From Acidobacteriota bacterium (GTDB taxonomy: Bacteria; Acidobacteriota; Terriglobia; UBA7540): a DNA stretch of 63,315 nt. The DNA lies in the NCBI GenBank assembly GCA_902812365.1, contig CADDZC010000013.1:1-63315 (forward strand). Reading direction: 5' to 3'. Each line of letters opens with the position of its first letter. Positions within the stretch are counted from its first letter, which is position 1. The notes under the pieces are model-generated. The model saw only the letters and a list, made by a program, of their open reading frames with translations, made no database searches and was not told where the DNA came from. Below are positions 4,001 to 31,675 of the stretch, one piece after another. A program made the translations under genes and the position numbers.

Positions 4001-4074
4001 TGGCTGGGAGGCCTGGATTCGAACCAGGGTTCCATGCTCCAAAGGCATGTGTCCTACCACTGGACGACCTCCCA
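4001..4074 (-). tRNA. tRNA-Gln (anticodon UUG)
   Basis: The minus strand folds into a full 74-nt cloverleaf. The 7-bp acceptor stem is TGGGAGG/CCTCCCA with G discriminator and encoded CCA. The D arm is GTCC/GGAC with an AGTGGTA loop. The anticodon stem CATGC/GCATG encloses loop CTTTGGA, giving anticodon TTG. The T arm is CCTGG-TTCGAAT-CCAGG. It lies between ispE and prs on the same strand. Confidence 0.97.
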
Positions 4075-18509: not shown

Positions 18510-19079
18510 TTGACGTTGCCGCTGACGACCGTGCCCATCTTGCCCTGCCGCCATGACGCCAACGCGCTGGTTCAGATTGAACCCGCGATCGATCTCCTTC
18601 GCCACCTGGACCGTCGCCATCCCGAAGTGTTGCGGCCAGCTGGAATAACGCCCGAGGACTATCACCCGAAACGAATCTTTTGCTCGGCGGTGGAGACCAT
18701 TTGAGGCAGTGTCATCGCCTCCTCCCTCACCCAGCGCCACCAAATGCTGGCCGATATCTTCGGCCGCCTGCGCGAGCAGAGGAAAATAGCGGGGTTCGAA
18801 CCGACGCGCCGAGGAACCCGCCATGACTTCACCCCCATCCTGACGGAGAAGCCGCGAGTGGCGGCGGCCTTGGATGTAAAAGGGGTGAAGGCAACAGCAT
18901 TACGATTACGGAACGTGCCGCCGTGGGCACAGGAATTCCTGATGTGGTGCCACCTGGATGGCGCGATCACGAATCAACCGTCGCCGAGCGTCCGCTCGAT
19001 CACTGTCAACCGGCTGGCGAACGATCTCGTCCGGCGCGGCAAGGTTGTGGACGCCATTCTGTTCAAGGATCAGCGATGC
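18510..19079 (+). pseudogene. Disrupted gene, possible PD-(D/E)XK nuclease-like protein
   Basis: One reading frame stays coding-like (high GC at third positions) from a TTG at 18510 to about 19079 but is cut by a single TGA at 18702-18704. The two halves read ...PKRIFCSAVETI, stop, GSVIASSLTQRHQM... and then LREQRKIAGFEPTRRGTRH with DF and, after 11 residues, LDVKG. The D...DVK spacing resembles the PD-(D/E)XK nuclease core. Further on are EFLMWCHLDGAITNQPS and VVDAILFKDQRCG, after which similarity to any protein shape ends where the minus-strand oxidase gene begins. A TATATT box 9 bases upstream of the TTG suggests the original promoter. I do not recognise the family by name. It may be an intact short gene plus remnant, or a sequencing error at the TGA. 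Confidence 0.4.
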
Positions 19080-19417
19080 GGCTCGCTGAGCGCCGCCTTC
19101 TGCCAGGGCTGGGGCAGAGGAGCCCAATCGCGGCTGTGCATGTCGGCCAGGGTGAGGACGATCAGAAACGACAGCCAGAGGAGCGCGGCGATGATGACGA
19201 TGCGGGTGAGCCCCTTGTGATACTTGAGGCCCATGAAGAACAGCACCACGCAGGTGGCCTTGGAGACGGCAATGACCAGGGCGACGACGGTGTTGAAGTA
19301 GCCGAGATCAATATAGGCCACGCCGGTGGTCAGGACGGTGAGCACGATCAAGGCCACAAACGTCAGGATATAGACCCGCGACGGCACGACGTGCCCGGTG
19401 AGCGAATGGTCCGGCAT
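19070..19417 (-). CDS. ctaF: Cytochrome c oxidase subunit IV
   Basis: A 115-residue membrane protein with three hydrophobic helices (YILTFVALIVLTVLTTGVAY, VVALVIAVSKATCVVLFFMG, RIVIIAALLWLSFLIVLTL), matching the small prokaryotic oxidase subunit IV that stabilises the oxidase. The motif SKATCVVLFFMGLKYHKG is typical. The ATG at 19417 overlaps the stop of the subunit III gene in ATGA, so this start is chosen over an upstream one. It is the last gene of the 12-gene respiratory operon. Confidence 0.9.
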   Translation of the reverse strand: MPDHSLTGHVVPSRVYILTFVALIVLTVLTTGVAYIDLGYFNTVVALVIAVSKATCVVLFFMGLKYHKGLTRIVIIAALLWLSFLIVLTLADMHSRDWAPLPQPWQKAALSEPHR

Positions 19418-20103
19418 CAGTAACGGCCCCCGATGAGATAGAGCAGCGGAAAGAGGAAAATCCACACAATATCCACAAAGTGCCAGTAGAGTCCCACCAT
19501 CTCGACGGTGTTAAAGTCCCCGGAAACAAAGCGCCCGCGATAAGCCATGATGATCAGGAAGGTCAGCAGGCCCACGCCCACCACCATGTGCAAGGCGTGG
19601 ATGCCGGTCATCACGAAATAAAAAATCATGAAGAGGGCGACGTGGGAGAGAGGCGCTCCAAAACGCCGGATCACCTCGAGCGCCTCGCCCTGGGGGGCAA
19701 ACGACACCCCGGGCACGAGATGCTCGAGGTAATCGCCGTACCACTCCCAGCGCAGCTTGATGATGACGAAGGCGGCGCCCAACAGCAGAGTCAGGACGAG
19801 AAACCCGATCAGCGGTTTGCGCCGGCCGAGCTGAGCGGAGCGCACGGCCATGGCCATGGTCAAGCTGCTGCAGATCAGCATGACGGTATAGGAGGCGCCG
19901 TAAGCGACTTTCAGCAGGTGGCTGCCGGCGGCAAAGGCGGCCGGATAAAGGGAGCGATAGAGGGCGTAGCTGGCAAACAGGCCGCCGAAGAACAGGATTT
20001 CCGTGGCCAGAAAGATCCACATGCCAAAGCTGGCCGCGTCCCGCTGCTGGATGATATCGTCGAATTGCTCGGCCACCAGGGCCGGAGCCGGACCCTCAGG
20101 CAA
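19417..20103 (-). CDS. ctaE: Cytochrome c oxidase subunit III
   Basis: A 228-residue heme-copper oxidase subunit III in the inner membrane. It begins with a soluble stretch ([20 protein letters not shown]) and has five hydrophobic helices, with [20 protein letters not shown] in the first and [12 protein letters not shown] and [18 protein letters not shown] in the last. Its start overlaps the ctaD stop by 8 bases and its stop overlaps the subunit IV start. The 5-helix length is that of caa3-type oxidases. Confidence 0.95.
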
Positions 20104-21727
20104 CGTGAGCCTCCTGGCGAGCGCCGTAAGCGTAAGCTTCTTCGGTCACGATCGGCGTCTCATGGAAGTTGTGGGTGGGAGGGGGCGAAGAAGTCTCCCA
20201 CTCGAGCCCTTTCGCGCCCCATGGATTGGGGCCGGCAATCGGGCCGTAGCGCAGGGACCAGATCATGTAGATGAGGGGGATGACGTAGCCGACGGCGAGA
20301 ATCGAAGCCCCGGCCGAGGACAGAACGTTGAGGGCCTGAAACTCGGGCGGGTAGACGGCGTAGCGGCGCGGCATGCCGAGATAACCCAGAATGAACTGAG
20401 GGCCGAACGTCAGGTTGAATCCGACGAAGATGATGAGGGCCGAGAGCCTCGCCCAGGTCTCGGGGTACAGGCGCCCGGTCATCTTCGGCCACCAGTAATG
20501 GAGGCCGCCGAGATACCCCATCACGGCCCCGCCCACCATGATGTAGTGGAAATGCGCGATCACGAAATACGTGTCGTGCAGGTGGATGTCGGCGGCCATC
20601 GAGGCCAGGAAGAGGCCCGTCAGCCCGCCGATGGTGAACAGGCCGATGAATCCCAAGGCGTAGAGCATGGGCGCGTCGTAGGAGACGGAGCCTTGATACA
20701 TGGTGGCCGTCCAGTTAAAGACCTTGACGGCGGAGGGAATGGCCACGGCGAAGCTGAGGGCCGAAAACACCAGTCCGGCGTAAATGGATTGGCCGCTTAC
20801 AAACATGTGGTGGCCCCAGACCAGGAAGGAGATCACGGCGATGGCGACGCTCGAAAAGGCCACAAAGCTGTAGCCAAAGACGCGCCGGCGCGAGAACGCC
20901 GCCACCAATTCGCTGATCACGCCCATCGACGGCAGAATCAAAATGTAGACTTCCGGGTGGCCAAAGAACCAGAACAGGTGCTGGAACAGGATCGGATCGC
21001 CACCGAGCGCGGGGTCAAAAATGCCGACGTGGAAGATGCGCTCGAGCATGATCAGCACCATGGTAATGGCGATGACCGGCATGGCGAGGATGAAGATGAG
21101 GCTGGCCGCGTACATCGACCAGATGAACAGCGGCAGGCGGAACCAGGTCATGCCCGGGGCGCGCATCTTGTGGATGGTGACGGCGAAGTTAAGTCCGGTG
21201 AGGATGGAGGAGAACCCGGAAATGAAGATGCCCATGGCCGCCGACAGCACGTTGGTGTTGACGTAGGTGGTGGACAGCGGCGTGTAAAACGTCCAGCCGG
21301 TATCGACGCCACCGGAAATCACGGCGTAGAGGAAGACGCCGCCGCCGGCGATAAACAGATACCAACTGAGTAGATTCAGTTTGGGAAAGGCGACGTCGCG
21401 GGCCCCGATGACGATGGGAATGGCGAAGTTCCCGAGCACGGTGGGGACGGCCGGGGCCAGGAAGAAGAAGATCATGATCAGGCCGTGGACGGTGAAGAGC
21501 TTATTGTAAGTGGCCGGCTCCACCAGCGAGCCCTGCGGCTCGATCAGATTGAGCCGCATCAGCGTGGCGGCGACGCCGCCAACGACGAAGAAGAACGTGA
21601 TCGAGACCAGGTAGAGCCAGGCGATGCGCTTGTGGTCGGTCGTGAACAGCCACGACCGCCAGCCGTAATTGACGTTGAGGTAATGCACTTCCGGCAAGGC
21701 CGGAACTTCCACCGTGGCCGTGCTCAT
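20096..21727 (-). CDS. ctaD: Cytochrome c oxidase subunit I (heme a / heme a3-CuB)
   Basis: Catalytic subunit of an aa3-type heme-copper oxidase, reducing oxygen to water with proton pumping. The 543-residue product has about 12 membrane helices. It contains [15 protein letters not shown] (low-spin heme His), [17 protein letters not shown] (CuB His-Glu-Val-Tyr centre), [10 protein letters not shown] (CuB His pair) and [17 protein letters not shown] (heme a/a3 His). The Glu in GHPEVY is the D-channel glutamate of A1-type oxidases. Its ATG overlaps the ctaC stop by 4 bases. Confidence 0.97.
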
Positions 21728-22668
21728 GGCTTCGTACCTTTCCTTTCTGGCGGTCCCCCCAAAGACTTAATATAGGCGATCAATTGCAGAATCTGATCCT
21801 CGCTCACCTGGCCCTGGAACGTCGGCATGACGTTGGGATAACCAGCGATGGGCTGCGGGTCGATGATCGCCTCGCGCAGGAAGGCGTCATCCACCAGCCG
21901 CGTCTGGCCATTTTGCATCCGGATCGTCTGGCCGACAATTCCCCGCAGCGACGGCCCCTTGGGGCCGGTTTGGGCGTGGCAACTGTCGCACCCGAGCTGG
22001 TTGAAGAGCTTCTGACCGGCGGCGGCCATGGGCTCGGCCTGCATCTGGCTAGTCAGCCAGCGCGCGTACTCGTCCTGCGGCATCACGTCAATCCAACCGA
22101 CCATGTGGGAGTGGCCCATGCCGCAGTACTGGTCGCAAAACAGGTGAAAGCGCCCGGTGGAAGTGGCTTCGAACCATTCGGTGGAGTACATGCCGGGGAC
22201 GACGTCGCGCTTGATGCGGAAAGCCGGGACGGCGAAGTCGTGGATGACGTCTTCGGAGGTCATGGTGAGCTTGATGGGAACGCCGACGGGAACGTGTAGG
22301 TCATTGATTTCACGAGGGCCTTCGGGATGCTGAACCTTCCACATCCACTGCTTGGCGACGACGAAGACCTCGGTCGAGGCCGCCGGTGGAATCGAGTTCT
22401 CGATGAAGAGCCGGGAGGCCCAGACGAACATGACCACGCACAGCAGGGCGGGGATGATGGTCCAAATCAGTTCCAGTTTGAGGTTGCCTTCGATCTGCCG
22501 CGGAATCTCGTCCTTCGAGCGACGGCGGTACTTGATGGCGAAAATGAAGATGGCGGCGAAAATCAGGGCGCTGAAGAAAACGGTGATGGCCGTCAGAAAA
22601 TAAAACAAATGGTCCCACGCCACCGAGAAGGTGGAGGCTTGTTGAGGTTTTAAGGGAAATATCAACAT
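21724..22668 (-). CDS. ctaC: Cytochrome c oxidase subunit II with fused cytochrome c (caa3 type)
   Basis: Electron-entry subunit. The 314-residue product has two N-terminal helices (about residues 20-45 and 65-85), a cupredoxin domain with the CuA site (H143, C178, C182, H186, M189), and a C-terminal class I cytochrome c domain with the heme site CDSCH (227-231) and distal Met in YPNVMPTF. This fusion defines caa3 oxidases, which need no separate soluble cytochrome c. One CuA position usually Glu is Gln180; only its backbone binds copper, so function need not be lost. The ATG at 22668 is preferred over a TTG at 22731 that overlaps the SCO stop. Confidence 0.95.
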
Positions 22669-22727
22669 CGTCTCTAATGACCGCGCCAGGATTCCATCGT
22701 TGGCCGCCGCTACGCCCCGCCCTCGCC

Positions 22728-23585
22728 TCAAGGGGCCCGGCGAGGTTCGGTCTTGAACATCACCATCACCATCGCTCCCAGCGTCACCACGGTAAAAGCC
22801 GCCGCGATCTTTAGAACTCGGGAAATGATGAAGCTATACTTTCCGGTCATCGGATCATACTGGCAGCAATACAGCAGCACTTCGTCCACCGGATTGCCGA
22901 TCTTGCCTTGCGAGGCCTCCACCAGCCCTAAGCGAAGGCTACCCGCCGGGTAGGTGATTCCGTAAAAATAGCGGGCCAGCCGCCCCTGGGGCGTTAAAAC
23001 CATGATTCCGGTGGCATGGATGAACTGCTGGGTCTGAGCATCGTAGTGGTATCTAAATCCCACGGCATCAGCAAGTTGCCTGATAGACTCCGGGTCGCCC
23101 GTCAGGAAATGCCAGCCGTTGGCTGCGCCGGGGCGTCCGTACAGCCCGACGTAGACGGCCTTCTTAGCCGCCGCGAGCGACGGCTGCTCGCGAGGATCAA
23201 TACTGACCGTCACCACCTGGAAATCTTGACCAACGTTGAACTTAAGCTCTTTCAAGCTGTTCAGAATCCCGTTCAAAACCAGCGTGCACAGCATCGGGCA
23301 GTCGTAATAGACCAACGCCAGGATCACCGGCTGGCGGCCGAAATAATCTCCCAGCCGAACCGCGTCTCCGGCCTCGTCGCGGAACGGCAAGTCTAATGGA
23401 ATCTGGTTATTAAGCCGTTGTTCAATGCCCACCCCTTGAAGCACGGAGGGGAGCGCCTTGGCGTTTCGAACTTCTCCCCGCGCCGCGCCGGCGGCCAGAC
23501 AACCGAGCACTGCCACCGCGCAGGCGACCACGGCGAGGCGGGCCTGGCGGCGGAAAGTCTGGCGGCGAGCCGATAAGCTCGCCAT
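22728..23585 (-). CDS. SCO1/SenC family copper chaperone
   Basis: Thioredoxin-fold protein that helps load copper into the CuA centre of oxidase subunit II. The 285-residue product has an N-terminal signal/anchor, the CPMLC copper motif (C96, C100) and the ligand His190 in QFIHATG. It is longer than usual: after the thioredoxin fold comes YCCQYDPMTGKYSF and a C-terminal membrane helix (about residues 257-280), an arrangement seen in respiratory gene clusters of acidobacteria and relatives. The ATG at 23585 has an AAAGGA site. It lies just upstream of ctaC, its probable target. Confidence 0.92.
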   Translation of the reverse strand: MASLSARRQTFRRQARLAVVACAVAVLGCLAAGAARGEVRNAKALPSVLQGVGIEQRLNNQIPLDLPFRDEAGDAVRLGDYFGRQPVILALVYYDCPMLCTLVLNGILNSLKELKFNVGQDFQVVTVSIDPREQPSLAAAKKAVYVGLYGRPGAANGWHFLTGDPESIRQLADAVGFRYHYDAQTQQFIHATGIMVLTPQGRLARYFYGITYPAGSLRLGLVEASQGKIGNPVDEVLLYCCQYDPMTGKYSFIISRVLKIAAAFTVVTLGAMVMVMFKTEPRRAP

Positions 23586-23611
23586 AACATCCTTTCTTTC
23601 TTGCACTTACC

Positions 23612-24127
23612 TTACCTCCTCCAGCGCGCCGCCAAAGCCGTCGATCCACCCCCCGACGAAGCCGCCCGTTCGGACTCCGCGGCCGTCCTCTGCCCGCCCG
23701 CGTGACGCCCGGGCTTGGCCATCAACGGATTCGCCGGCGCGTTGCTCCTGGCGTGAAGTAAGTTCTTTTTTATCAACAGATCCATCGCCCTGTCAATCGG
23801 TATGCGGACGATCCCTTGCTCCCGGTTGACCCAGCCGTACGAATTGAGGATGCGGTTCTGGCGATCCAGGTACTGCTGTAACTCCGCCGGCGCGTTCACC
23901 TGCAGCCGGGGTTCCGGGGGCAGCGTTCGGACGTTGCTCTCTAACGGGGAGGCCGGCGGCCCCGCATTCTCTTGCGTCGTGTAATACCGGAACGTGACAT
24001 ACGCTACCACCAGGCCCGCCACCAGGAACACGGCCAGTCCGATTCCCCAGTGGATCAGCGTGCGGACACTCGCATCCCGGGTTTCGTGCTTCAGTTCCGA
24101 GTTTGGAACCCCGGAGTTATTCTCCAT
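23612..24127 (-). CDS. Conserved-looking single-pass membrane protein of the respiratory operon
   Basis: A 171-residue protein with one membrane helix (about residues 24-46, HWGIGLAVFLVAGLVVAYV). A periplasmic segment has PPEPRLQVNAPAELQQYLDR and the motif SYGWVNREQGIVRIPIDRAM, followed by a low-complexity Ala/Ser/Arg tail. I recall the W-V-(N/D)-x2-x-G-x-V-R-I-P-I-D-x-A-M pattern as recurring next to alternative complex III genes, but its function is not established to my knowledge. The ATG at 24127 has an AAGGAG site and overlaps the actF end by 11 bases. An accessory or assembly role for the complex III-oxidase pair is inference from position. Confidence 0.8.
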   Translation of the reverse strand: MENNSGVPNSELKHETRDASVRTLIHWGIGLAVFLVAGLVVAYVTFRYYTTQENAGPPASPLESNVRTLPPEPRLQVNAPAELQQYLDRQNRILNSYGWVNREQGIVRIPIDRAMDLLIKKNLLHARSNAPANPLMAKPGRHAGGQRTAAESERAASSGGGSTALAARWRR

Positions 24128-25301
24128 GCCCGTAGACTCCTTCAAATCTCGGGTCGTGAAGCGGCAGGAAGGGCCTCTGCTTCAACTGGGATGTAAACCT
24201 CCACACCCACAGGCCCCCGATGCCGATCGGGGCCACAATGTCCATCCAATGGAGCGACGGGACGGCGGGGTGGAAGGCGGGCACGATGAGCCAGAACAGG
24301 TCCACCCAGGTCATCACCAGCAGCAAGGCGGCGACGGCCGACAGAGCCGTCATGCGGCGCTTCACGTCCCGCGAGAGCAGCAGTACGAAAGGCACGGCGA
24401 AATGGAACAGCACCAAGACCAGCGCCACCGCGCCCCAGCCGCCCGCGGCGCGGCTGGTGTACCAGGGAATCTCGTCCTGCAGGTTCCCCGCCCAGATGAT
24501 CAGGAACTGGTCGAACGACAGATACGCCCACAGCATGACAAAGACCAGGAGCAGGTTGCCGAAGTCGTTGAAGTCCAGCGGCGTGATTACGTTTGACACC
24601 GGATCATAGCGCGCCAGCAGCCGCACCACGATCGTGGCCAACGCCATCGCCGCCAGCGCCGGCAGCACAATGTAGATCATGCCGTAAATGGTGGAGAAGA
24701 ACTGCGGCTCGAGCGACATGATCCAGTCCACGACGGCGAAGGTGACCGTAAATCCATACAGCACCAGGCCCGCCGCGCTGAGCTTCTTCATCTTGCCGAG
24801 CCAGCGGCGGTCGTCATCGCCCTGCTCGTCCTGCCGCCACGACCATCGATTCAGCAGGTAGATGAAGATCACCCAGGCCGCAAAGTAGCCGATCGTCCGC
24901 CCCACCCAAAACGGCACGCTCAAGTACGCGCTCTTGAAAGGCGGCAGCGCCTCGCCGGCCACCGTGGCCGGCTGCGCCCAGCTATAGAGCCTCGGCAAGC
25001 CGAAGAAAAACGGGATGAAGAGCCAGACCATGAGGGTCCACACCGTCTGGGCGGCGGCTTCGAGCGGCCGGCGCAGCAAATAGCCCCACTTCCCGTTCAC
25101 CTGGTGGTGCAGCATGACGATGCCAAAGCTCCCGAGCGCCACGGCCAGCCACAGCATGTAGCCCAATAGGTAAGAGCGGAAGAACTGGGTAGGGTTCGCA
25201 CGCCACTCGAGAGCGCACAGGATCAGGGCCGCCACCCCGACCCCGAGCGCCAGACGCCCCACCCGATCCAGGTTCGGTTGTCCGCTGCCGTTCCCGTTCA
25301 T
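24117..25301 (-). CDS. actF: Alternative complex III membrane subunit ActF
   Basis: A 394-residue polytopic membrane protein with about ten helices, one of the two quinol-related membrane subunits (ActC and ActF) of alternative complex III. Recognisable ActF features are FFRSYLLGYMLWLAVALGS, MLHHQVNGKWG, WIMSLEPQFFSTIYGM, and FDQFLIIWAGNLQDEIPWY. It lacks the cofactor-binding features of soluble subunits. Its start overlaps actE by 4 bases, so the act genes are translationally coupled. Confidence 0.93.
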   Translation of the reverse strand: MNGNGSGQPNLDRVGRLALGVGVAALILCALEWRANPTQFFRSYLLGYMLWLAVALGSFGIVMLHHQVNGKWGYLLRRPLEAAAQTVWTLMVWLFIPFFFGLPRLYSWAQPATVAGEALPPFKSAYLSVPFWVGRTIGYFAAWVIFIYLLNRWSWRQDEQGDDDRRWLGKMKKLSAAGLVLYGFTVTFAVVDWIMSLEPQFFSTIYGMIYIVLPALAAMALATIVVRLLARYDPVSNVITPLDFNDFGNLLLVFVMLWAYLSFDQFLIIWAGNLQDEIPWYTSRAAGGWGAVALVLVLFHFAVPFVLLLSRDVKRRMTALSAVAALLLVMTWVDLFWLIVPAFHPAVPSLHWMDIVAPIGIGGLWVWRFTSQLKQRPFLPLHDPRFEGVYGHGE

Positions 25302-25936
25302 GGTGCCTTCCCCGCCAGCGCGCCGCGTTCCGGGGCCGGCACGTCATCAAGGGTAGCGTGCTGGCTCAGTTGCAGGGCGCGAATGTAAGCCGCAATCCGC
25401 CATCGATCTTCCACCGATACGCGCGCGGCATAGCTGTACATGGCGCCGTAACCGTTCGTCATGACCTCGAAGAAGTGGCCCACGGGGGCCTTCATCAGCC
25501 GGTCGATATGGTAGGAAGGCGGGGCGGGATGCTGGAATCCGCGCTGCACCACCATGCCGCGGCCGCTGCCCGTGTAATCGTGGCACGGCGTGCAGTAGAC
25601 GTTGAAGCGCTCCCGCCCGCGCTCGAGATCGGCGGCCGTGATCGGAAACGGGAATTCGTCGGCCACCACGCCGTTGATCCGGCCCGTGTAGAGCAGCGTG
25701 TCCGTGCGCAGATGGCCGTGCGCCACCGTGCCCGGCACCATCGGCCGCTCCGACCGGCCGTCGTTGAACAGGTCCGTCGGCGCGTAAGGATCAAACCGCG
25801 GCTGAATGTGCATATCGAGGCGGCAAGCCGCCAGACACGAGGCGAGGAGCAGGAGACTAACGCCGGCCGCCGCCCGCTGGCCGCCTTGCCATCGAGGCTC
25901 CCGCCGCGCCCGGGTTAACGTCATCTCGGAATTCAT
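25298..25936 (-). CDS. actE: Alternative complex III mono-heme cytochrome c subunit ActE
   Basis: A 212-residue periplasmic lipoprotein. The signal peptide ends in the lipobox LAAC with the lipidated Cys38, and one heme c site, CTPCH, lies at 115-119. Upstream of it DMHIQPRFDPYAPTDLF is typical of ActE. It is expected to pass electrons from ActA/ActB towards the oxidase. The ATG at 25936 leaves 26 bases from actD; a second in-frame ATG follows at 25924. Confidence 0.92.
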   Translation of the reverse strand: MNSEMTLTRARREPRWQGGQRAAAGVSLLLLASCLAACRLDMHIQPRFDPYAPTDLFNDGRSERPMVPGTVAHGHLRTDTLLYTGRINGVVADEFPFPITAADLERGRERFNVYCTPCHDYTGSGRGMVVQRGFQHPAPPSYHIDRLMKAPVGHFFEVMTNGYGAMYSYAARVSVEDRWRIAAYIRALQLSQHATLDDVPAPERGALAGKAP

Positions 25937-25962
25937 CTCAGAATCACTTCGCGCCCGCAACT

Positions 25963-26502
25963 TCAGCTCTCGACCTCCATCACCCGGGAAGGATTGAGTC
26001 CCTCCAGGAACTCCCGCGTAGTCACCACGTCATAGCGGCGATCGCGGGCCTTAATCACCAGAAAGAATCGGTCGCGGCTGCACACCTCGAAGCGCTCGAC
26101 GTTGAACACCGGATGGTAGGGCGTGGGCAAGCCGTTGAGCGCCAGCATGCCAAAGAAGGTGGTCAGGGCGGCGCACAGAATCGTCAGCTCGAACGTGATC
26201 GGAATGAACGCCGGCCAACTGTTCCACGGCTTGCCGCCGACGTTGATCGGGAAACCGATCACGTTCGGCCACCACTGCAGAAAGAATCCGCCCGAGCACC
26301 CGAGCAGCCCCCCGATGAACACCAGCACCGGCAGGCGCGTGCGATGGAATCCGATCGCCTCGCCCAGGTTCTCGATCGGGAACGGGCTGAAGGCGTCGAT
26401 CTCCCGATACCCGGCCTCGCGGGTCCGCCGCACCGCCGCCAGCAGTTGCTCCGGCGTCTCGAATTCCGCCATCAAGCCGTAAAGTGGGCGCTTCCTCGCC
26501 AT
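25963..26502 (-). CDS. actD: Alternative complex III subunit ActD (DUF3341)
   Basis: A 179-residue protein with two membrane helices (LPVLVFIGGLLGCSGGFFLQ and FIPITFELTILCAALTTFFG) and a cytoplasmic alpha/beta part (YGLMAEFETPEQLLAAVRRT), the standard ActD layout. No cofactor is expected. It is a structural subunit bridging ActC and the cytoplasmic side. The ATG at 26502 begins MARKRPLYGLMAEF, matching family N-termini; the longer upstream frame is not supported. Confidence 0.92.
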   Translation of the reverse strand: MARKRPLYGLMAEFETPEQLLAAVRRTREAGYREIDAFSPFPIENLGEAIGFHRTRLPVLVFIGGLLGCSGGFFLQWWPNVIGFPINVGGKPWNSWPAFIPITFELTILCAALTTFFGMLALNGLPTPYHPVFNVERFEVCSRDRFFLVIKARDRRYDVVTTREFLEGLNPSRVMEVES

Positions 26503-26571
26503 GCTCGTTGCCCCGGGGCACGCGCTTCTCCGGCCGGTTCCCCGAGCTCCGGCCGACGCCACCACGAAACT

Positions 26572-27939
26572 CTAAGCCTTCACTTCCTCCGCCTGCGTCT
26601 TGTGCACCAGGTGCCGCAACTCCGACATCGAGATCATCGGCAACAGCCGCACAAACAGATAGAACAGGGTCAGGAACAGCCCGATCGTGCCCAGGAACAC
26701 TTCCCAATCCACCTTCGTCGGGTAGTACATACCCCAGGCCGAGGGCAGGTAATCGCGGTGCAGGCTCAAAACAATGATCACAAACCGCTCCAGCCACATT
26801 CCGGTCTGGATAATGAGGGCATCCACAAACAGCAGCCAGGGGCTGCGCCGCACCCGCCGGAACCACAACGCCTGGGGCGCAATCAGGTTGCAGCCAATCA
26901 GCGTCCAGAAGACGGCGGCGTAGGGGCCGAAGAACCGGTTCAGCATCATGTAGCGGTCATACGGGTTGCCGCTATAGAAGGCCATGAAGGTTTCCATGAC
27001 GTAGGCATAAGTGACGATCATGCCGGTGGCCAGCATCAACTTCGCCATGTTGTCGAGGTGTTTGAGGGTGACGAAGTCTTCCAGGTGATACCAGCGGCGC
27101 AGCGGGATGGCCAGGGTCAAGACCATGGCAAAACCGGAATAAATGGCTCCGGCCACGAAGTAGGGGGGGAAGATGGTCGAATGCCAGCCGGGAACGATGG
27201 CGATGGTGAAGTCGAAGCTCACCACGGTGTGCACCGAAACCACGAGCGGGGTCGAGATGCCGGCCAGCAGCAACCCGGCCATTTCGTATCGCTCCCAGTG
27301 AATCGCCGAACCCCGCCACCCCCAGGATAGGATGCCGTAAACGATCTTGACGGCCCGGCTCTTGGCCTTGTCCCGCATCGTCCCGAAGTCGGGGATCAGG
27401 CCGAGGTACCAGAACAGGATCGAGACCGTCAGATAAGTCGACACCGCGAAGACGTCCCACACCAGCGGGCTGCGGAACTGCGGCCACGTGCCCATCGTGT
27501 CCGGATACGGAAAGAGCCAGTAGAACAGCCATGGCCGCCCCAGGTGCAGCAGGGGGAACATGCCGGCGCAGGCCACGGCGAAGATCGTCATGGCCTCGGC
27601 GAAGCGGTTGATTGAAGTCCGCCAGCGCTGGCGCATGAGGAGCAGGAAGGCGGAGATCAGCGTGCCGGCGTGGCCGATTCCGATCCACCAGACGAAGTTG
27701 GTGATGGCGAATCCCCAGGCCACGGGAATGTTGACGCCCCACACCCCCACGCCGTAGGTCATCAGCAGAACCACGCCATAGTGGAAGACGATCAGCAAAG
27801 CGATGGCGACGGCGAAGCCCGCCTTCCACCATTTGCCCGTCCCTTCCTTCAGCACGATGTCGCTGATCTTGTCCGTCACCGTGCCGTAGTTGTGTCCGGG
27901 CGCCAGTTCCAGGTCTTGAGGTTCGATTCCGACGGGCAT
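26572..27939 (-). CDS. actC: Alternative complex III quinol-binding membrane subunit ActC (NrfD/PsrC family)
   Basis: A 455-residue, roughly ten-helix membrane protein of the NrfD/PsrC family that binds menaquinol at the periplasmic side of alternative complex III. Motifs such as NFVWWIGIGHAGTLISAFLL, HLGRPWLFYWLFPYPD, SVHTVVSFDFTIAIVPGWHS and TIFPPYFVAGAIYSG are diagnostic. An AAGGAG site precedes the ATG, 12 bases downstream of actB. The presence of menG in the window fits menaquinol as the donor. Confidence 0.95.
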   Translation of the reverse strand: MPVGIEPQDLELAPGHNYGTVTDKISDIVLKEGTGKWWKAGFAVAIALLIVFHYGVVLLMTYGVGVWGVNIPVAWGFAITNFVWWIGIGHAGTLISAFLLLMRQRWRTSINRFAEAMTIFAVACAGMFPLLHLGRPWLFYWLFPYPDTMGTWPQFRSPLVWDVFAVSTYLTVSILFWYLGLIPDFGTMRDKAKSRAVKIVYGILSWGWRGSAIHWERYEMAGLLLAGISTPLVVSVHTVVSFDFTIAIVPGWHSTIFPPYFVAGAIYSGFAMVLTLAIPLRRWYHLEDFVTLKHLDNMAKLMLATGMIVTYAYVMETFMAFYSGNPYDRYMMLNRFFGPYAAVFWTLIGCNLIAPQALWFRRVRRSPWLLFVDALIIQTGMWLERFVIIVLSLHRDYLPSAWGMYYPTKVDWEVFLGTIGLFLTLFYLFVRLLPMISMSELRHLVHKTQAEEVKA

Positions 27940-27951
27940 TCCCGCTGCTCC

Positions 27952-30900
27952 TTACGCCTGAATCTCGGGGTTCGGATTCCTCAGCTTGGCCAGATACGTC
28001 GTGCGCGGCCGCGTGTTCAAATCCCGCAACAGGCCGTATTGCCGCGATTGCGCCTTGAGCCGGCTCACCCGGCTGTTCGGGTCGTTGATATTGCCGAAGA
28101 CGATGGCCTGGGTGGGGCACGTCTGCTGGCACGCGGTTTGAATCTCGCCGTCCTTCACCACCCGGTCTTCCACTTCGGCGCGGATTTTGGCCTCCTGGAT
28201 CCGCTGCACGCAGTAAGTGCACTTCTCCATCACCCCGCGGCTGCGGACGGTGACGTCGGGGTTGCGCAGCGGATAGAGGCTCGGCGTATCCCAGTCCGAG
28301 AACAGGTAGAAATTGAAGCGCCGGACTTTGTACGGGCAGTTGTTCGAGCAGTAGCGGGTTCCGACGCAGCGGTTGTACACCATCAGGTTCAAACCCTCGG
28401 GGCTGTGGAGGGTGGCGCCGACCGGGCAGACGTACTCGCAGGGAGCGTTCTCGCACATCATGCAGAGCACCACCTGGTTGTACATTTCGGGGTTGTCGAG
28501 GCCGCCGCGAAAGTATTTATCGACGCGGATCCACGCCATGTCGCGGCCGTCATCCACCTGTTCCTTGCCCACCACGGCGTTGTTATTCTCAGCGTAGCAC
28601 GCCACCACGCACGCATTGCAGCCCGTACAGGCGTTCAGGTCGATCGACATTCCCCACTGGTAGCCGTGCTGGTAGTCGTAAGGCGGATAGAGGGATTGGG
28701 CGTCCGTCGTCTCCTCCGGCGGATCGGCGGCAAAGTCGGGATGGCTCCTGAACTGCTCGAGCGTCGCCACCCGCACCAGGCCGCGCGCGAAAGCCGCTTC
28801 GCTCTCCTCGGAGAAGACCTTCCTCCCCTCGCGGTCGTTGATGAGGTGGTCGTTCTGGAGCGTGACCAGGTGATATTTTTGTCCGGTCTTGCGCAGATCG
28901 AGCCCCGGCCCAAACCACGGGTTCGCGCTGGTGCGCAAAGCGTAGGCATTGAAACCCACGCCGGTTCCCATCCGCCCGGCCCGCTGGCGCCCATAGCCCA
29001 GAAACACCGTTACGCAATCGTTGGCCTGCCCGGGCACAATGAACACCGGCGCTTCCAGTTCGCGACCCTGGAAGCGGAGGCGGACGAAGTCGGCCCGCTC
29101 AAGGTGGAAACGCTCGGCGGTCGCCACGCTAACGTAGGCGGCGTTATCCCAGGTGAGGCTGGTGAACGGCTTGGGAAGCTCCTGCAGCCAGCCCAGGTTG
29201 GCGTAACTGCCGTCGCCGACCGTCGGATCGGGCCGGAAGATCAGCTCCAGCCCTCCCGCGTCCGGCGCCGCGGGAGCCGGCTCGAACGAGGCCCGCAAGC
29301 TGACCACTTTCGGCGGCAACGCTGTGCCGTCCACCACGCCGTTGTTGAGCCAGGTTTCCCACTGGGTCTCGAAATCGGCTCCGCCGACCGTGCCGGAGCC
29401 GAGCTGCCGCCTCCAGTAATCCCGCACCAGGTCGTGCCCGGATCGCCCCGCCTGGCCGTTCAGCAAGGCGAGGAATTCGTATTCCGACCGCCCGTTATAG
29501 AGCGGAGCGATAAGCGGCTGAATGATGCTGACCGTGCCGTCGTAAGCGCGCACGTCGCCCCAGGCCTCGAGGTAATGAGCCTGGGGAAGGTGCCAGTGGC
29601 ACAGCACCGCCGTCTCGTCCTCGTACAGGCCGAGATGGACGCGGTAGCGAACCTTCAGTAGCTCATCGGCAAAGGACAGGTCGGCGGGGGCGTTGTAGAC
29701 GGGATTGCCGCCGATGATGATCAGCGTGTCGACCTGGCCGGCCTGGATCGCCGCCACCAGCTCGCGGAGCGACTGAAGCTCGTCGACCGGGTTGGCTTCG
29801 ATCGGGGCCGTGTGAATGACTGTCTGGCCGGCATTGCCGAGGGCCTCATTCATGGCGTGCGCCAGGGCGTGAACGATGGGCGGCTGGGCGTCGCCGGCCA
29901 TGACCGCGCTGGCCCCCCGATGCGCCTGAAGATCACGGGCGAGGGCGGCCACGGCCCCCGCCGGGACGCTGGGCGGCACGGCTCCGCCCCCCGCTTTCAC
30001 CCCCAAGGCGGCCGCCACGGCGCGCGCGAAGCCTTCAACTTCGCTCGCCCGCATCGGCCACCGATGGTCGGCCATAGCCCCGGTGTTGCTCGGCGTCGAT
30101 TCGACCACGTAAAGGCGGTTCATCGTGCTCCGCGTATCCACCACGCGGCGCCGGTCGGTGAAGTCGCGGGCGTAACGAACCGTTCCCGGGCCGCAACCGA
30201 GAAAGTCGGCCTCAAGCGACAGCACGACCTCGGCCCGATCCAATCTGTAAACCGTGTTGACGTACTCGCCGAAGGCCAGCTTCGCCCCGGCGCGGGCGTT
30301 ATCGCGGCCCACCGGCTCGTATTGGTGCCAGCGGGCGGAAGGAAACTGGGCGAGAAACGCCTGGATCTGGTCGGCCAGGGTCGGCGAGGTCACCGTGCCC
30401 GTCAACAGCCGGATGCCGGCTCCCTGCAGCGGACGCTGATTGTCCAGATTGTTCCCGATATCGGCCGCCAATTCTTCCCAGGTTCCGAGCCGCCCCACGT
30501 GTTTCACCACCTGCGAGCGGTCCGGATCGTACATCTGCAGCACCGACGCCTGGGCGAAAATATCGGCGGCTCCGAGGCTGCCCGGATGCCCCGGATTGCC
30601 TTCCACCTTGGTGGGCCGTCCCAAGTGGCTCTCGACGAGCAACCCGATCCCCACCCCACTCTGCGGCATGGCCGTGGCATAATATAGCGGCACTCCGGGC
30701 GTGAATTCTTCCGGCTGGCGCACGTAAGGAACGATCTTCTCGATCGGGAGCTTGGTGCAGGCCGTCAGGCCCGCCAGGGCGGCCGAGGCGCCCATGGACT
30801 TGAGAAGGTCGCGGCGGGTCAGGGCCGCGCGCGGCAGGCCGCGGGGAAACTCGTGGTGCAGGGCGCTGGCCACCTCGGGCGTCTCTGCCAGCTCGTCCAA

Positions 30901-30996
30901 ACTGCGCCAGAAACGCCGGCTGGCCTCCCCTGCCTCCGCCGCGGCGCGAATCTGAACCAGGTCCAGTTTCCCCTCCCGGTGGTGACGATCGCTCAT
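27952..30996 (-). CDS. actB: Alternative complex III iron-sulfur subunit ActB (fused molybdopterin-oxidoreductase-like + ferredoxin)
   Basis: A 1014-residue periplasmic subunit. The N-terminus has a Tat-type motif (TRRDLLKSMGASAALAGLTAC). The large middle part resembles molybdopterin oxidoreductases, but ActB proteins are known not to bind the molybdenum cofactor. The C-terminal third holds cysteines for up to four iron-sulfur clusters: CTGCNACVVAC, CMMCENAPCEYVCP, CVGTRYCSNNCP, and CTYC with CQQTCP. Together they form the electron wire from quinol towards the hemes. It lies 19 bases downstream of actA. Confidence 0.95.
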   Translation of the reverse strand: MSDRHHREGKLDLVQIRAAAEAGEASRRFWRSLDELAETPEVASALHHEFPRGLPRAALTRRDLLKSMGASAALAGLTACTKLPIEKIVPYVRQPEEFTPGVPLYYATAMPQSGVGIGLLVESHLGRPTKVEGNPGHPGSLGAADIFAQASVLQMYDPDRSQVVKHVGRLGTWEELAADIGNNLDNQRPLQGAGIRLLTGTVTSPTLADQIQAFLAQFPSARWHQYEPVGRDNARAGAKLAFGEYVNTVYRLDRAEVVLSLEADFLGCGPGTVRYARDFTDRRRVVDTRSTMNRLYVVESTPSNTGAMADHRWPMRASEVEGFARAVAAALGVKAGGGAVPPSVPAGAVAALARDLQAHRGASAVMAGDAQPPIVHALAHAMNEALGNAGQTVIHTAPIEANPVDELQSLRELVAAIQAGQVDTLIIIGGNPVYNAPADLSFADELLKVRYRVHLGLYEDETAVLCHWHLPQAHYLEAWGDVRAYDGTVSIIQPLIAPLYNGRSEYEFLALLNGQAGRSGHDLVRDYWRRQLGSGTVGGADFETQWETWLNNGVVDGTALPPKVVSLRASFEPAPAAPDAGGLELIFRPDPTVGDGSYANLGWLQELPKPFTSLTWDNAAYVSVATAERFHLERADFVRLRFQGRELEAPVFIVPGQANDCVTVFLGYGRQRAGRMGTGVGFNAYALRTSANPWFGPGLDLRKTGQKYHLVTLQNDHLINDREGRKVFSEESEAAFARGLVRVATLEQFRSHPDFAADPPEETTDAQSLYPPYDYQHGYQWGMSIDLNACTGCNACVVACYAENNNAVVGKEQVDDGRDMAWIRVDKYFRGGLDNPEMYNQVVLCMMCENAPCEYVCPVGATLHSPEGLNLMVYNRCVGTRYCSNNCPYKVRRFNFYLFSDWDTPSLYPLRNPDVTVRSRGVMEKCTYCVQRIQEAKIRAEVEDRVVKDGEIQTACQQTCPTQAIVFGNINDPNSRVSRLKAQSRQYGLLRDLNTRPRTTYLAKLRNPNPEIQA

Positions 30997-31015: not shown

Positions 31016-31675
31016 TTAGCGGTGACACGTCTCGCAGCTGGTGAGGTAGGTCGGCGTCTTCACGTCGTAAGCCTTCACCAGCCGACGGCCCAGCTCCTCC
31101 TGATTGGCCGGCGGATCGTAAATGGGTTTGAAGACATCCTCGCGGCGCCGGATGTACCGCTCCGGATGCTTATGGCAGTTGATGCACCAGCGCATGTACA
31201 GCGTGTTCTCCTTCCACGTGATGGGCATCTCGCCCAGCTGACCGTGGCAGGTTGTGCAGCCGATCCCCTTGTGAATGTGAATGCTGTGATTGAAATAGAC
31301 GAAATCCGGCAGGGCGTTGACCCGCGTCCAGGCGATCGACTGCCCGGTCAGGAAACTGGCCCGCACCGGCTCGAGCATGGCGGCATTCGTCCACAGTTGC
31401 GAGTGGCAGGTCATGCAGGTCTCGGTCGAGGGTAGGCCCGCGAAGGCCGATTTCTCGACCGAGGTGTGGCAATACCGGCAATCGATGCCGTCGTCCACGG
31501 TGTGGTGCTTGTGGCTGAAGGGGATCGGCTGCACCAGGGGCAGCTTCGCATCCGTGTACAGCGGAGACTGCTCCACCACCCAGCTGACATAAGCCAGCCC
31601 CCCCAGCAGTAGCAGGCCCCCGTAAATACTGACCCGCGCAATGGTGTTAAAACTGCGATGGAAGATTTGGGCCAT
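31016..31675 (-). CDS. actA: Alternative complex III pentaheme cytochrome c subunit ActA
   Basis: A 219-residue membrane-anchored (helix about residues 16-34) multiheme cytochrome. Five CxxCH sites are visible: CRYCH 66-70, CMTCH 87-91, CTTCH 140-144, CINCH 164-168 and CETCH 214-218, plus extra His residues (FSHKHH, FNHSIHIHKG) for distal ligation. This is the expected ActA count. It is the first gene of the operon. The upstream ribosome binding site (TTTAGG) is weak. Confidence 0.96.
   Translation of the reverse strand: MAQIFHRSFNTIARVSIYGGLLLLGGLAYVSWVVEQSPLYTDAKLPLVQPIPFSHKHHTVDDGIDCRYCHTSVEKSAFAGLPSTETCMTCHSQLWTNAAMLEPVRASFLTGQSIAWTRVNALPDFVYFNHSIHIHKGIGCTTCHGQLGEMPITWKENTLYMRWCINCHKHPERYIRRREDVFKPIYDPPANQEELGRRLVKAYDVKTPTYLTSCETCHR

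What the first reader, a model, noticed from the sequence alone, without database searches (positions are those of the whole stretch)
23612..24127. Uncharacterised single-TM protein between actF and the SCO chaperone
It is embedded by overlap in the operon exactly at the complex III/oxidase junction and carries a striking YGWVNREQGIVRIPIDRAM motif. Position suggests an assembly factor or a linker subunit between the two complexes. No function is known to me.
Basis: inference. Interest (0 to 1): 0.5.

Follow-up and report, generated by a model that had tools for sequence, protein, structure and literature searches.

The report
ActG subunit of alternative complex III
The unnamed small membrane protein between two respiratory-chain gene blocks is ActG, an already described small subunit of the bacterial alternative complex III, for which the two protein-family databases searched hold no entry.

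Summary
The ORF is real. It lies on the minus strand (24127 to 23612, 171 aa), overlaps the end of actF and is followed by SCO and caa3 oxidase genes. It is not of unknown kind. Its only credible PDB match by sequence is 8k9e chain G, named ActG (E 2.7e-5; family profile 8e-11; profile-profile probability 98.9%). The striking motif is ActG's conserved core, which AlphaFold2 models as helix, beta-hairpin, helix behind one membrane helix. Homologues fill the same operon slot in many phyla. Among 297 Acidobacteriota genomes all 147 with ActG also have ActD. The 'linker or assembly factor' idea is weakened: the ActG of solved structure is encoded in a cluster without oxidase genes nearby, and other act clusters that do adjoin oxidase genes lack ActG. 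Its genes follow the ActA/B/E module somewhat better than the ActC/D/F module. None of 57 members matches a Pfam or NCBIfam family convincingly. Verdict: new member of a known kind, low interest. One open lead is a pair of conserved elements found mainly in oxidase-adjacent ActG.

The parts
23612..24127 (-). actG: single-TM protein, 171 aa, homologue of the ACIII subunit ActG
   Evidence: ORF; PDB match to 8k9e chain G; profile-profile
24137..24143 (-). Shine-Dalgarno-like GAAGGAG before the ATG of actG, inside actF
   Evidence: sequence printed
24074..24088 (-). N-terminal HETRD box (residues 14-18), E15 conserved 93%, D18 84% in 57 rows; common in oxidase-adjacent ActG, not seen in stand-alone ActG
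23969..24067 (-). predicted membrane helix (residues 21-53; hydrophobic core 28-46)
23900..23920 (-). PPEPRLQ box (residues 70-76) after the membrane helix; P73 96%, L75 98% in 57 rows
23747..23893 (-). predicted helix 79-94, beta-hairpin 96-101/105-110, helix 111-127: the ActG core domain
   Evidence: AlphaFold2 model; conservation; aligned to the solved ActG
23783..23839 (-). motif YGWVNREQGIVRIPIDRAM (residues 97-115)
24117..25301 (-). actF (context)
   Evidence: no Pfam or NCBIfam hit
25298..25960 (-). actE, monohaem cytochrome c (context)
25963..26565 (-). actD, Pfam PF11821 (context)
26572..27939 (-). actC, NrfD family (context)
27952..30996 (-). actB, iron-sulphur subunit (context)
31016..31675 (-). 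actA, multihaem cytochrome c (context)
22728..23606 (-). SCO1/SenC copper chaperone (context)
19070..22731 (-). ctaC, ctaD, ctaE and caa3 subunit IV genes (context)

Best explanation
The protein is ActG, the small single-span accessory subunit of alternative complex III. Shown: it is homologous to the ActG chain of solved ACIII structures over the core domain, has one hydrophobic span and no haem motif, and keeps company with ACIII genes. Inferred: it anchors in the membrane by one helix and packs its conserved helix/beta-hairpin/helix domain against the complex. This domain would sit on the side of the ActA/ActB/ActE electron-transfer module, which in Rhodothermus marinus is periplasmic, and would help hold that module on the membrane. 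It is not catalytic: it shows no redox-centre motif, and many ACIII clusters do without it. Its position before SCO and the oxidase genes reflects the act-cta superoperon rather than a duty as a bridge.
For: PDB by sequence: 8k9e_G (molecule names 'Uncharacterized protein | hypothetical protein | ActG', also 8k9f, 8x2j, 9ilt), E 2.7e-5 with the single protein, 6.4e-10 with a 14-row profile, 8.1e-11 with a 57-row profile; next best 0.48, none listed up to 1, and 0.55 respectively. Profile-profile of 57 ActG rows against 9 stand-alone Chloroflexota ActG rows: probability 98.9%, E 1.8e-17 over 50 columns. Locus L186 encodes a protein identical in 112 of 112 residues to 8k9e_G and lies directly after actA-B-C-D-E-F. 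C. aurantiacus actG is a named ACIII component in both its operons, and the Cr operon has actG, SCO1/SenC and oxidase genes in the same order as this window (PMC3150298, passages). One predicted TM and an exclusive link with ACIII are stated in PMC5928083 (passages). Acidobacteriota: 147 of 147 ActG-positive genomes among 297 have ActD, 74 have ActD only, 76 neither. actF lies upstream in 78 of 80 homologous loci, the other 2 being contig edges. Link to the A/B/E module: the Cr-type cluster is actB-E-A-G without C, D, F in 10 of 10 Chloroflexota genomes examined, and Cp-type ActG is reported to reach its highest abundance together with ActA, B, E and not with C, D, F (PMC9316378, passages).
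Against: The alignment to the solved ActG covers only the C-terminal core (41 to 58 residues of the query or profile); the N-terminal arm, linker and tail do not align. Foldseek of the model against the PDB returned no match at E <= 0.001, and 8k9e_G is not among the 50 rows shown of 168, so structural confirmation is missing. The side of the membrane is not settled: positive-inside counts are tied or lean the other way for the oxidase-adjacent type. The A/B/E association has counter-examples: L148 has actC-D-F-A-B without ActG, and many full act clusters lack ActG. I could not read the structure paper. PMC9316378 says ActG is absent from R. marinus ACIII, PMC5928083 says it was confirmed there by peptide mass fingerprinting; I could not test R. 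marinus.
Confidence: 0.93

Rival explanations
1. It is a bridge that ties complex III to the caa3 oxidase in a supercomplex: the core binds ACIII, while the extra N-terminal HExxD box and the PPxPRLQ linker, found mainly in oxidase-adjacent ActG, contact the oxidase.
For: N-terminal box in 94 of 120 oxidase-adjacent ActG ORFs against 0 of 15 non-adjacent ones (one of the 15, L210, is a spurious match); linker box 106 of 120 against 3 of 15. In the 10 Chloroflexota genomes with both copies, the oxidase-adjacent copy has both boxes in 10 of 10; the other copy lacks the N-terminal box in 10 of 10 and the linker box in 9 of 10. [quoted passage not shown] marinus (PMC5928083, passages).
Against: ActG also occurs in ACIII clusters without oxidase genes nearby. 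Of 40 act regions read from genomes without a profile hit for ActG, 18 contain oxidase genes and only 2 of these 18 show a diverged ActG. 26 of 120 oxidase-adjacent ORFs lack the N-terminal box. The stand-alone copies are mostly one Chloroflexota lineage in the tree, so the contrast may be one event.
Confidence: 0.2
2. It is an assembly factor for the oxidase (copper or haem delivery), working with the SCO protein encoded next to it.
For: SCO or ctaC lies downstream of actG in 77 of 80 loci; the other 3 end within 560 nt.
Against: No cysteine in the protein, no CXXCH in any of 57 rows and any Cys in only 10 of 57, so no conserved metal-binding Cys. The ActG of solved structure is a chain of ACIII, and its cluster has no SCO or oxidase hit in the stretch read.
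Confidence: 0.04
3. It is an unrelated small membrane protein that happens to share a short IPIDRAM-like motif with ActG.
For: Only the core aligns; the single-sequence E-value is modest.
Against: Profile and profile-profile scores, same order of core after TM, same operon position, and intermediate Cr-type sequences.
Confidence: 0.03

Closest known systems
ActG of photosynthetic-type ACIII, PDB 8k9e chain G (Chloroflexus aurantiacus Cp operon; organism of the PDB entry recalled, not shown by a call)
   Same: one membrane helix then the LNSYG...G.V.IPIDRAMDL core, gene directly after actF
   Different: 112 aa against 171; arginine-rich N-terminal arm instead of the acidic HETRD arm; no PPxPRLQ linker; hairpin 2 residues shorter; no oxidase genes in the stretch read
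ActG of the Chloroflexus-type Cr (respiratory) operon
   Same: HExxD arm, PPxPRLQ-like linker, SYGWVN core, followed by SCO and oxidase genes
   Different: operon order actB-E-A-G, without actC, D, F; no long C-terminal tail
ActG of Rhodothermus marinus ACIII
   Same: predicted single TM, gene not in all act clusters (PMC5928083, passages)
   Different: sequence not compared here; two papers disagree on its presence
SCO1/SenC and other oxidase assembly factors
   Same: neighbouring gene
   Different: no Cys, no homology found

Membership tests
ActG (alternative complex III subunit) | sequence homology to the ActG chain of a solved ACIII | tested here: met
   core only
ActG (alternative complex III subunit) | one transmembrane helix, no haem motif | tested here: met
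   in 57 of 57 rows one hydrophobic segment and no second one above 1.6; no CXXCH in any row
ActG (alternative complex III subunit) | gene in an act cluster | tested here: met
   139 of 143 distinct ActG ORFs in the loci read have act genes near; the other 4 are one spurious match (L210) and three ORFs at contig edges (L088 twice, L096)
ActG (alternative complex III subunit) | occurs only in organisms with ACIII | tested here: met
   147 of 147 ActG-positive Acidobacteriota genomes have ActD; 27 of 29 in Chloroflexota, the exceptions being a spurious match (G448) and a 4.3-kb contig with actF beside ActG in a genome without an ActD hit (G477). Other phyla not counted.
ActG (alternative complex III subunit) | same three-dimensional fold as 8k9e chain G | tested here: inconclusive
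   Foldseek gave no significant match; coordinates not available to me
ActG (alternative complex III subunit) | co-purifies with ACIII | not testable with these tools
   needs biochemistry
Oxidase assembly factor (SCO-like copper chaperone) | conserved Cys metal site | tested here: not met
   query has no Cys; Cys in only 10 of 57 rows
caa3 oxidase subunit IV | TIGR02229 match | tested here: not met
   no such match for this protein; a separate gene at 19070-19465 matches

The most novel reading that the evidence does not exclude
ActG comes in two builds. A minimal one serves stand-alone (for example photosynthetic) ACIII. A longer one, with a conserved HExxD arm on one side of the membrane and a PPxPRLQ linker on the other, serves ACIII that feeds a neighbouring oxidase. 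The added parts would be the docking site for the caa3 oxidase, so that a single small subunit sets the electron acceptor of the complex. In Chloroflexus the Cp and Cr ActG copies would be exchanged together with the A/B/E module to switch partner.
Probability: 0.18. Interest if true: 0.55.

Novelty: new member of a known kind. Interest (0 to 1): 0.2.

Why it matters
It replaces 'hypothetical protein' by a subunit name for a family of which no member among 57 scanned matches a Pfam or NCBIfam family convincingly, and whose members come from at least eight phylum-level groups by the record titles and the labels. A family model would improve the annotation of many act operons. If the oxidase-adjacent build proves to be a docking element, it would give a simple genetic handle on how complex III and the oxidase find each other.

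Tried and rejected
BCCT transporter hits in Pfam and NCBIfam (E 0.003-0.009; a further one at 0.062) cover the membrane-helix region only, are below the cut-offs, and no other of the 57 rows matches those families at E 0.01 (two other stray single-row hits, DUF6479 and SctD): rejected. No relative in viral contigs. Long open frames around some ActG hits looked like ActF-ActG fusions; reading them showed alternative GC-rich frames with no hit to any other window protein in the same frame: rejected. Foldseek gave nothing usable. Positive-inside topology was inconclusive.

Limits of the box test: it used simple regular expressions; L021-L100 are the best 80 of 158 relatives; L161-L180 were picked by hand, mostly for odd features; at least L050 was mis-parsed; 8 ORFs near contig ends were left unclassed. 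In the tree L188 and L192 (unclassed) were labelled stand-alone, L210, L088, L096 and L050 were left out by me, L205 was dropped by the script's filters, and only every third oxidase-adjacent row of L021-L100 was used. Two of 38 distinct 'ActD only' genomes whose act regions I read (40 regions, of 74 such genomes) have a diverged ActG in the slot (L102, L105), so absence is overcounted.

Literature: the searches listed no held paper on the 8k9e structure; three look-ups by identifier were not held. Passages only were seen of PMC5928083, PMC8552683, PMC8361435, PMC11448878, PMC3150298, PMC3534657, PMC12342949 and PMC9316378. From recall only: that 8k9e is the C. aurantiacus complex, and that the abstract of the 2024 Plant Cell paper says ActG and ActI contribute to complex stability.

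Full report
What is there. On the minus strand the window carries actA, B, C, D, E, F (31675 to 24117), the ORF in question (24127 to 23612), SCO, and the caa3 oxidase genes ctaC, D, E and subunit IV. The ORF starts 11 nt inside actF behind a Shine-Dalgarno-like sequence and ends 5 or 26 nt before SCO, depending on the SCO start.

Identity. Pfam and NCBIfam give only weak, sub-threshold transporter matches to the membrane-helix region. A phmmer search of the PDB gives one sensible match, 8k9e chain G, called ActG in at least one of its four entries, E 2.7e-5, over the motif region. With a profile of 14 rows the E-value is 6.4e-10 and with 57 rows 8.1e-11; no other match is below 0.5 with either profile. 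That the entry is the Chloroflexus aurantiacus complex is recalled. A profile of nine such stand-alone ActG proteins matches the 57-row profile with probability 98.9% and E 1.8e-17 over 50 columns.

What the literature says. PMC3150298 (passages) names actG in both C. aurantiacus operons, Cp (actABCDEFG) and Cr (… actB, E, A, G, SCO1/SenC, oxidase genes); the G-SCO-oxidase order is that of this window. PMC5928083 (passages) describes ActG as a predicted single-span protein that seems to be present only in ACIII, confirmed by mass fingerprinting in R. [quoted passage not shown] PMC9316378 (passages) reports ActG as a membrane-bound ACIII subunit of C. aurantiacus whose Cp form is most abundant together with ActA, B and E. 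It also says that R. marinus ACIII lacks ActG, in conflict with PMC5928083. PMC3534657 and PMC12342949 (passages) report act clusters without actG.

Distribution. A scan of genome contigs with the family profile confirmed 158 relatives, of which the best 80 were kept. In 78 of 80, actF lies upstream; the two others start at a contig edge. In 77 of 80, SCO or ctaC lies downstream; the three others end within 560 nt. By record title or tree label they come from Acidobacteriota, Verrucomicrobiota, Chloroflexota, Planctomycetota, Pseudomonadota, Armatimonadota, Deltaproteobacteria (one labelled Myxococcota), Methylomirabilota and Binatia. Among 297 Acidobacteriota genomes, 147 have ActG and all 147 have ActD; 74 have ActD alone and 76 neither. 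Among 251 Chloroflexota genomes, 29 have ActG and 27 of these ActD. Of the two exceptions, G448 is a spurious match in a 497-residue frame without act genes near it, and G477 is a 4.3-kb contig with actF next to ActG.

Does it go with the oxidase? I read 40 act regions from 38 of the 74 'ActD only' genomes. Eighteen contain oxidase genes; of these 18, two (L102, L105) show a diverged ActG in the slot and 16 show none. In eight of the loci printed the slot between actF and SCO holds instead a membrane-anchored monohaem cytochrome c (L106 confirmed by Pfam). I also read two act clusters in each of ten genomes that have at least two; several of these genomes have a third ActD that I did not read. 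ActG lies in the actA-F-G-SCO-cta cluster in 10 of 10. The second cluster, of actC-D-F type, has no ActG in 10 of 10 (one hit of E 0.94 in L159 disregarded), although oxidase genes lie nearby in 9 of 10; L155 shows none in the stretch read. In 9 of these 10 no actA, B or E was found by tblastn in the stretch read; L148 has actA and actB. Conversely, 10 Chloroflexota genomes carry an actA-G cluster without oxidase genes in the stretch read (in two, L188 and L192, less than 3 kb downstream could be read) plus a second actB-E-A-G-SCO-cta cluster that lacks C, D and F. So ActG does not need an adjacent oxidase, an oxidase-adjacent ACIII does not need ActG, and ActG tends to travel with A/B/E, with L148 as a counter-example.

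Structure. AlphaFold2 on the 57-row alignment gives mean pLDDT 72.9 and pTM 0.34. Residues 21-53 are one confident helix; residues 79-94 helix, 96-101 and 105-110 a beta-hairpin, 111-127 helix; the rest of the C-terminus has no regular structure and low confidence. The most conserved residues or columns are L94, Y97, W99, G105, I109, P110, I111, R113, A114, M115, L118. Foldseek against the PDB found nothing significant, as may be expected for a long thin protein with a 50-residue domain. No CXXCH occurs in any row and Cys is not conserved, so a haem or copper role is unlikely.

How it probably works. Shown: homology, one hydrophobic span, company of ACIII, absence from many act clusters. Inferred: it is a small scaffold subunit that clips the peripheral A/B/E module to the membrane part through its core domain. 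The periplasmic side is inferred from the A/B/E link and from the arginine-rich N-terminal arm of the L186 protein; charge counts for the window's own type do not decide it.

An open lead. A box of the form HExxD before the membrane helix occurs in 94 of 120 oxidase-adjacent ActG ORFs and in 0 of 15 without adjacent oxidase genes; the linker box occurs in 106 of 120 against 3 of 15. Eight ORFs near contig ends were not classed, and one of the 15 (L210) is spurious. In the ten paired genomes the oxidase-adjacent copy has both boxes in 10 of 10, the other copy neither in 9 of 10 and the linker box alone in one. In a tree of 63 rows the Cr copies form one supported group, and thirteen of the 15 rows labelled stand-alone fall into one moderately supported Chloroflexota group (91/76), so this contrast may reflect one or two events. 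It is a hypothesis for oxidase docking, not a result.

Verdict. The protein is ordinary in kind: a diverged, unannotated ActG. The useful by-products are the assignment, the lack of a convincing Pfam or NCBIfam match for any of 57 members, the co-occurrence table and the two-build lead.

Noticed in passing
L149, L153, L157, L141, L103 (Acidobacteriota): A second act cluster with actC-D-F, a ~240-257 aa protein with signal-like N-terminus (weak CarboxypepD_reg-like domain in L149) and a divergent caa3-type oxidase; actA, B, E not found by tblastn in the 14-20 kb read; an amine-oxidase-like flavoprotein gene precedes actC in L149.
   Followed up: partly
L106:12235-12933 and equivalents in L107, L108, L111, L112, L115, L116, L140: In clusters whose ActD open frame is 392-402 aa (662 in L115), probably an ActD-ActE fusion, the slot of actG holds a membrane-anchored monohaem cytochrome c (Pfam for L106 only).
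   Followed up: partly
L102:12178-12501, L105:12382-12699, L174, L178: Strongly diverged ActG forms keep only a short core such as GRVSMPIDAAIEKLV; a profile built from the main group misses some of them.
   Followed up: partly
L177, frame starting at 4071: A 219-residue frame in the place of actG with a membrane helix but without the IPIDRAM motif.
   Followed up: no
window 23756-23764: The window protein departs from the family right after the motif: N122 where 96% of rows have G and L124 where 84% have P; its C-terminal tail also lacks the QYTVPKGYTP-like ending of several close relatives.
   Followed up: no
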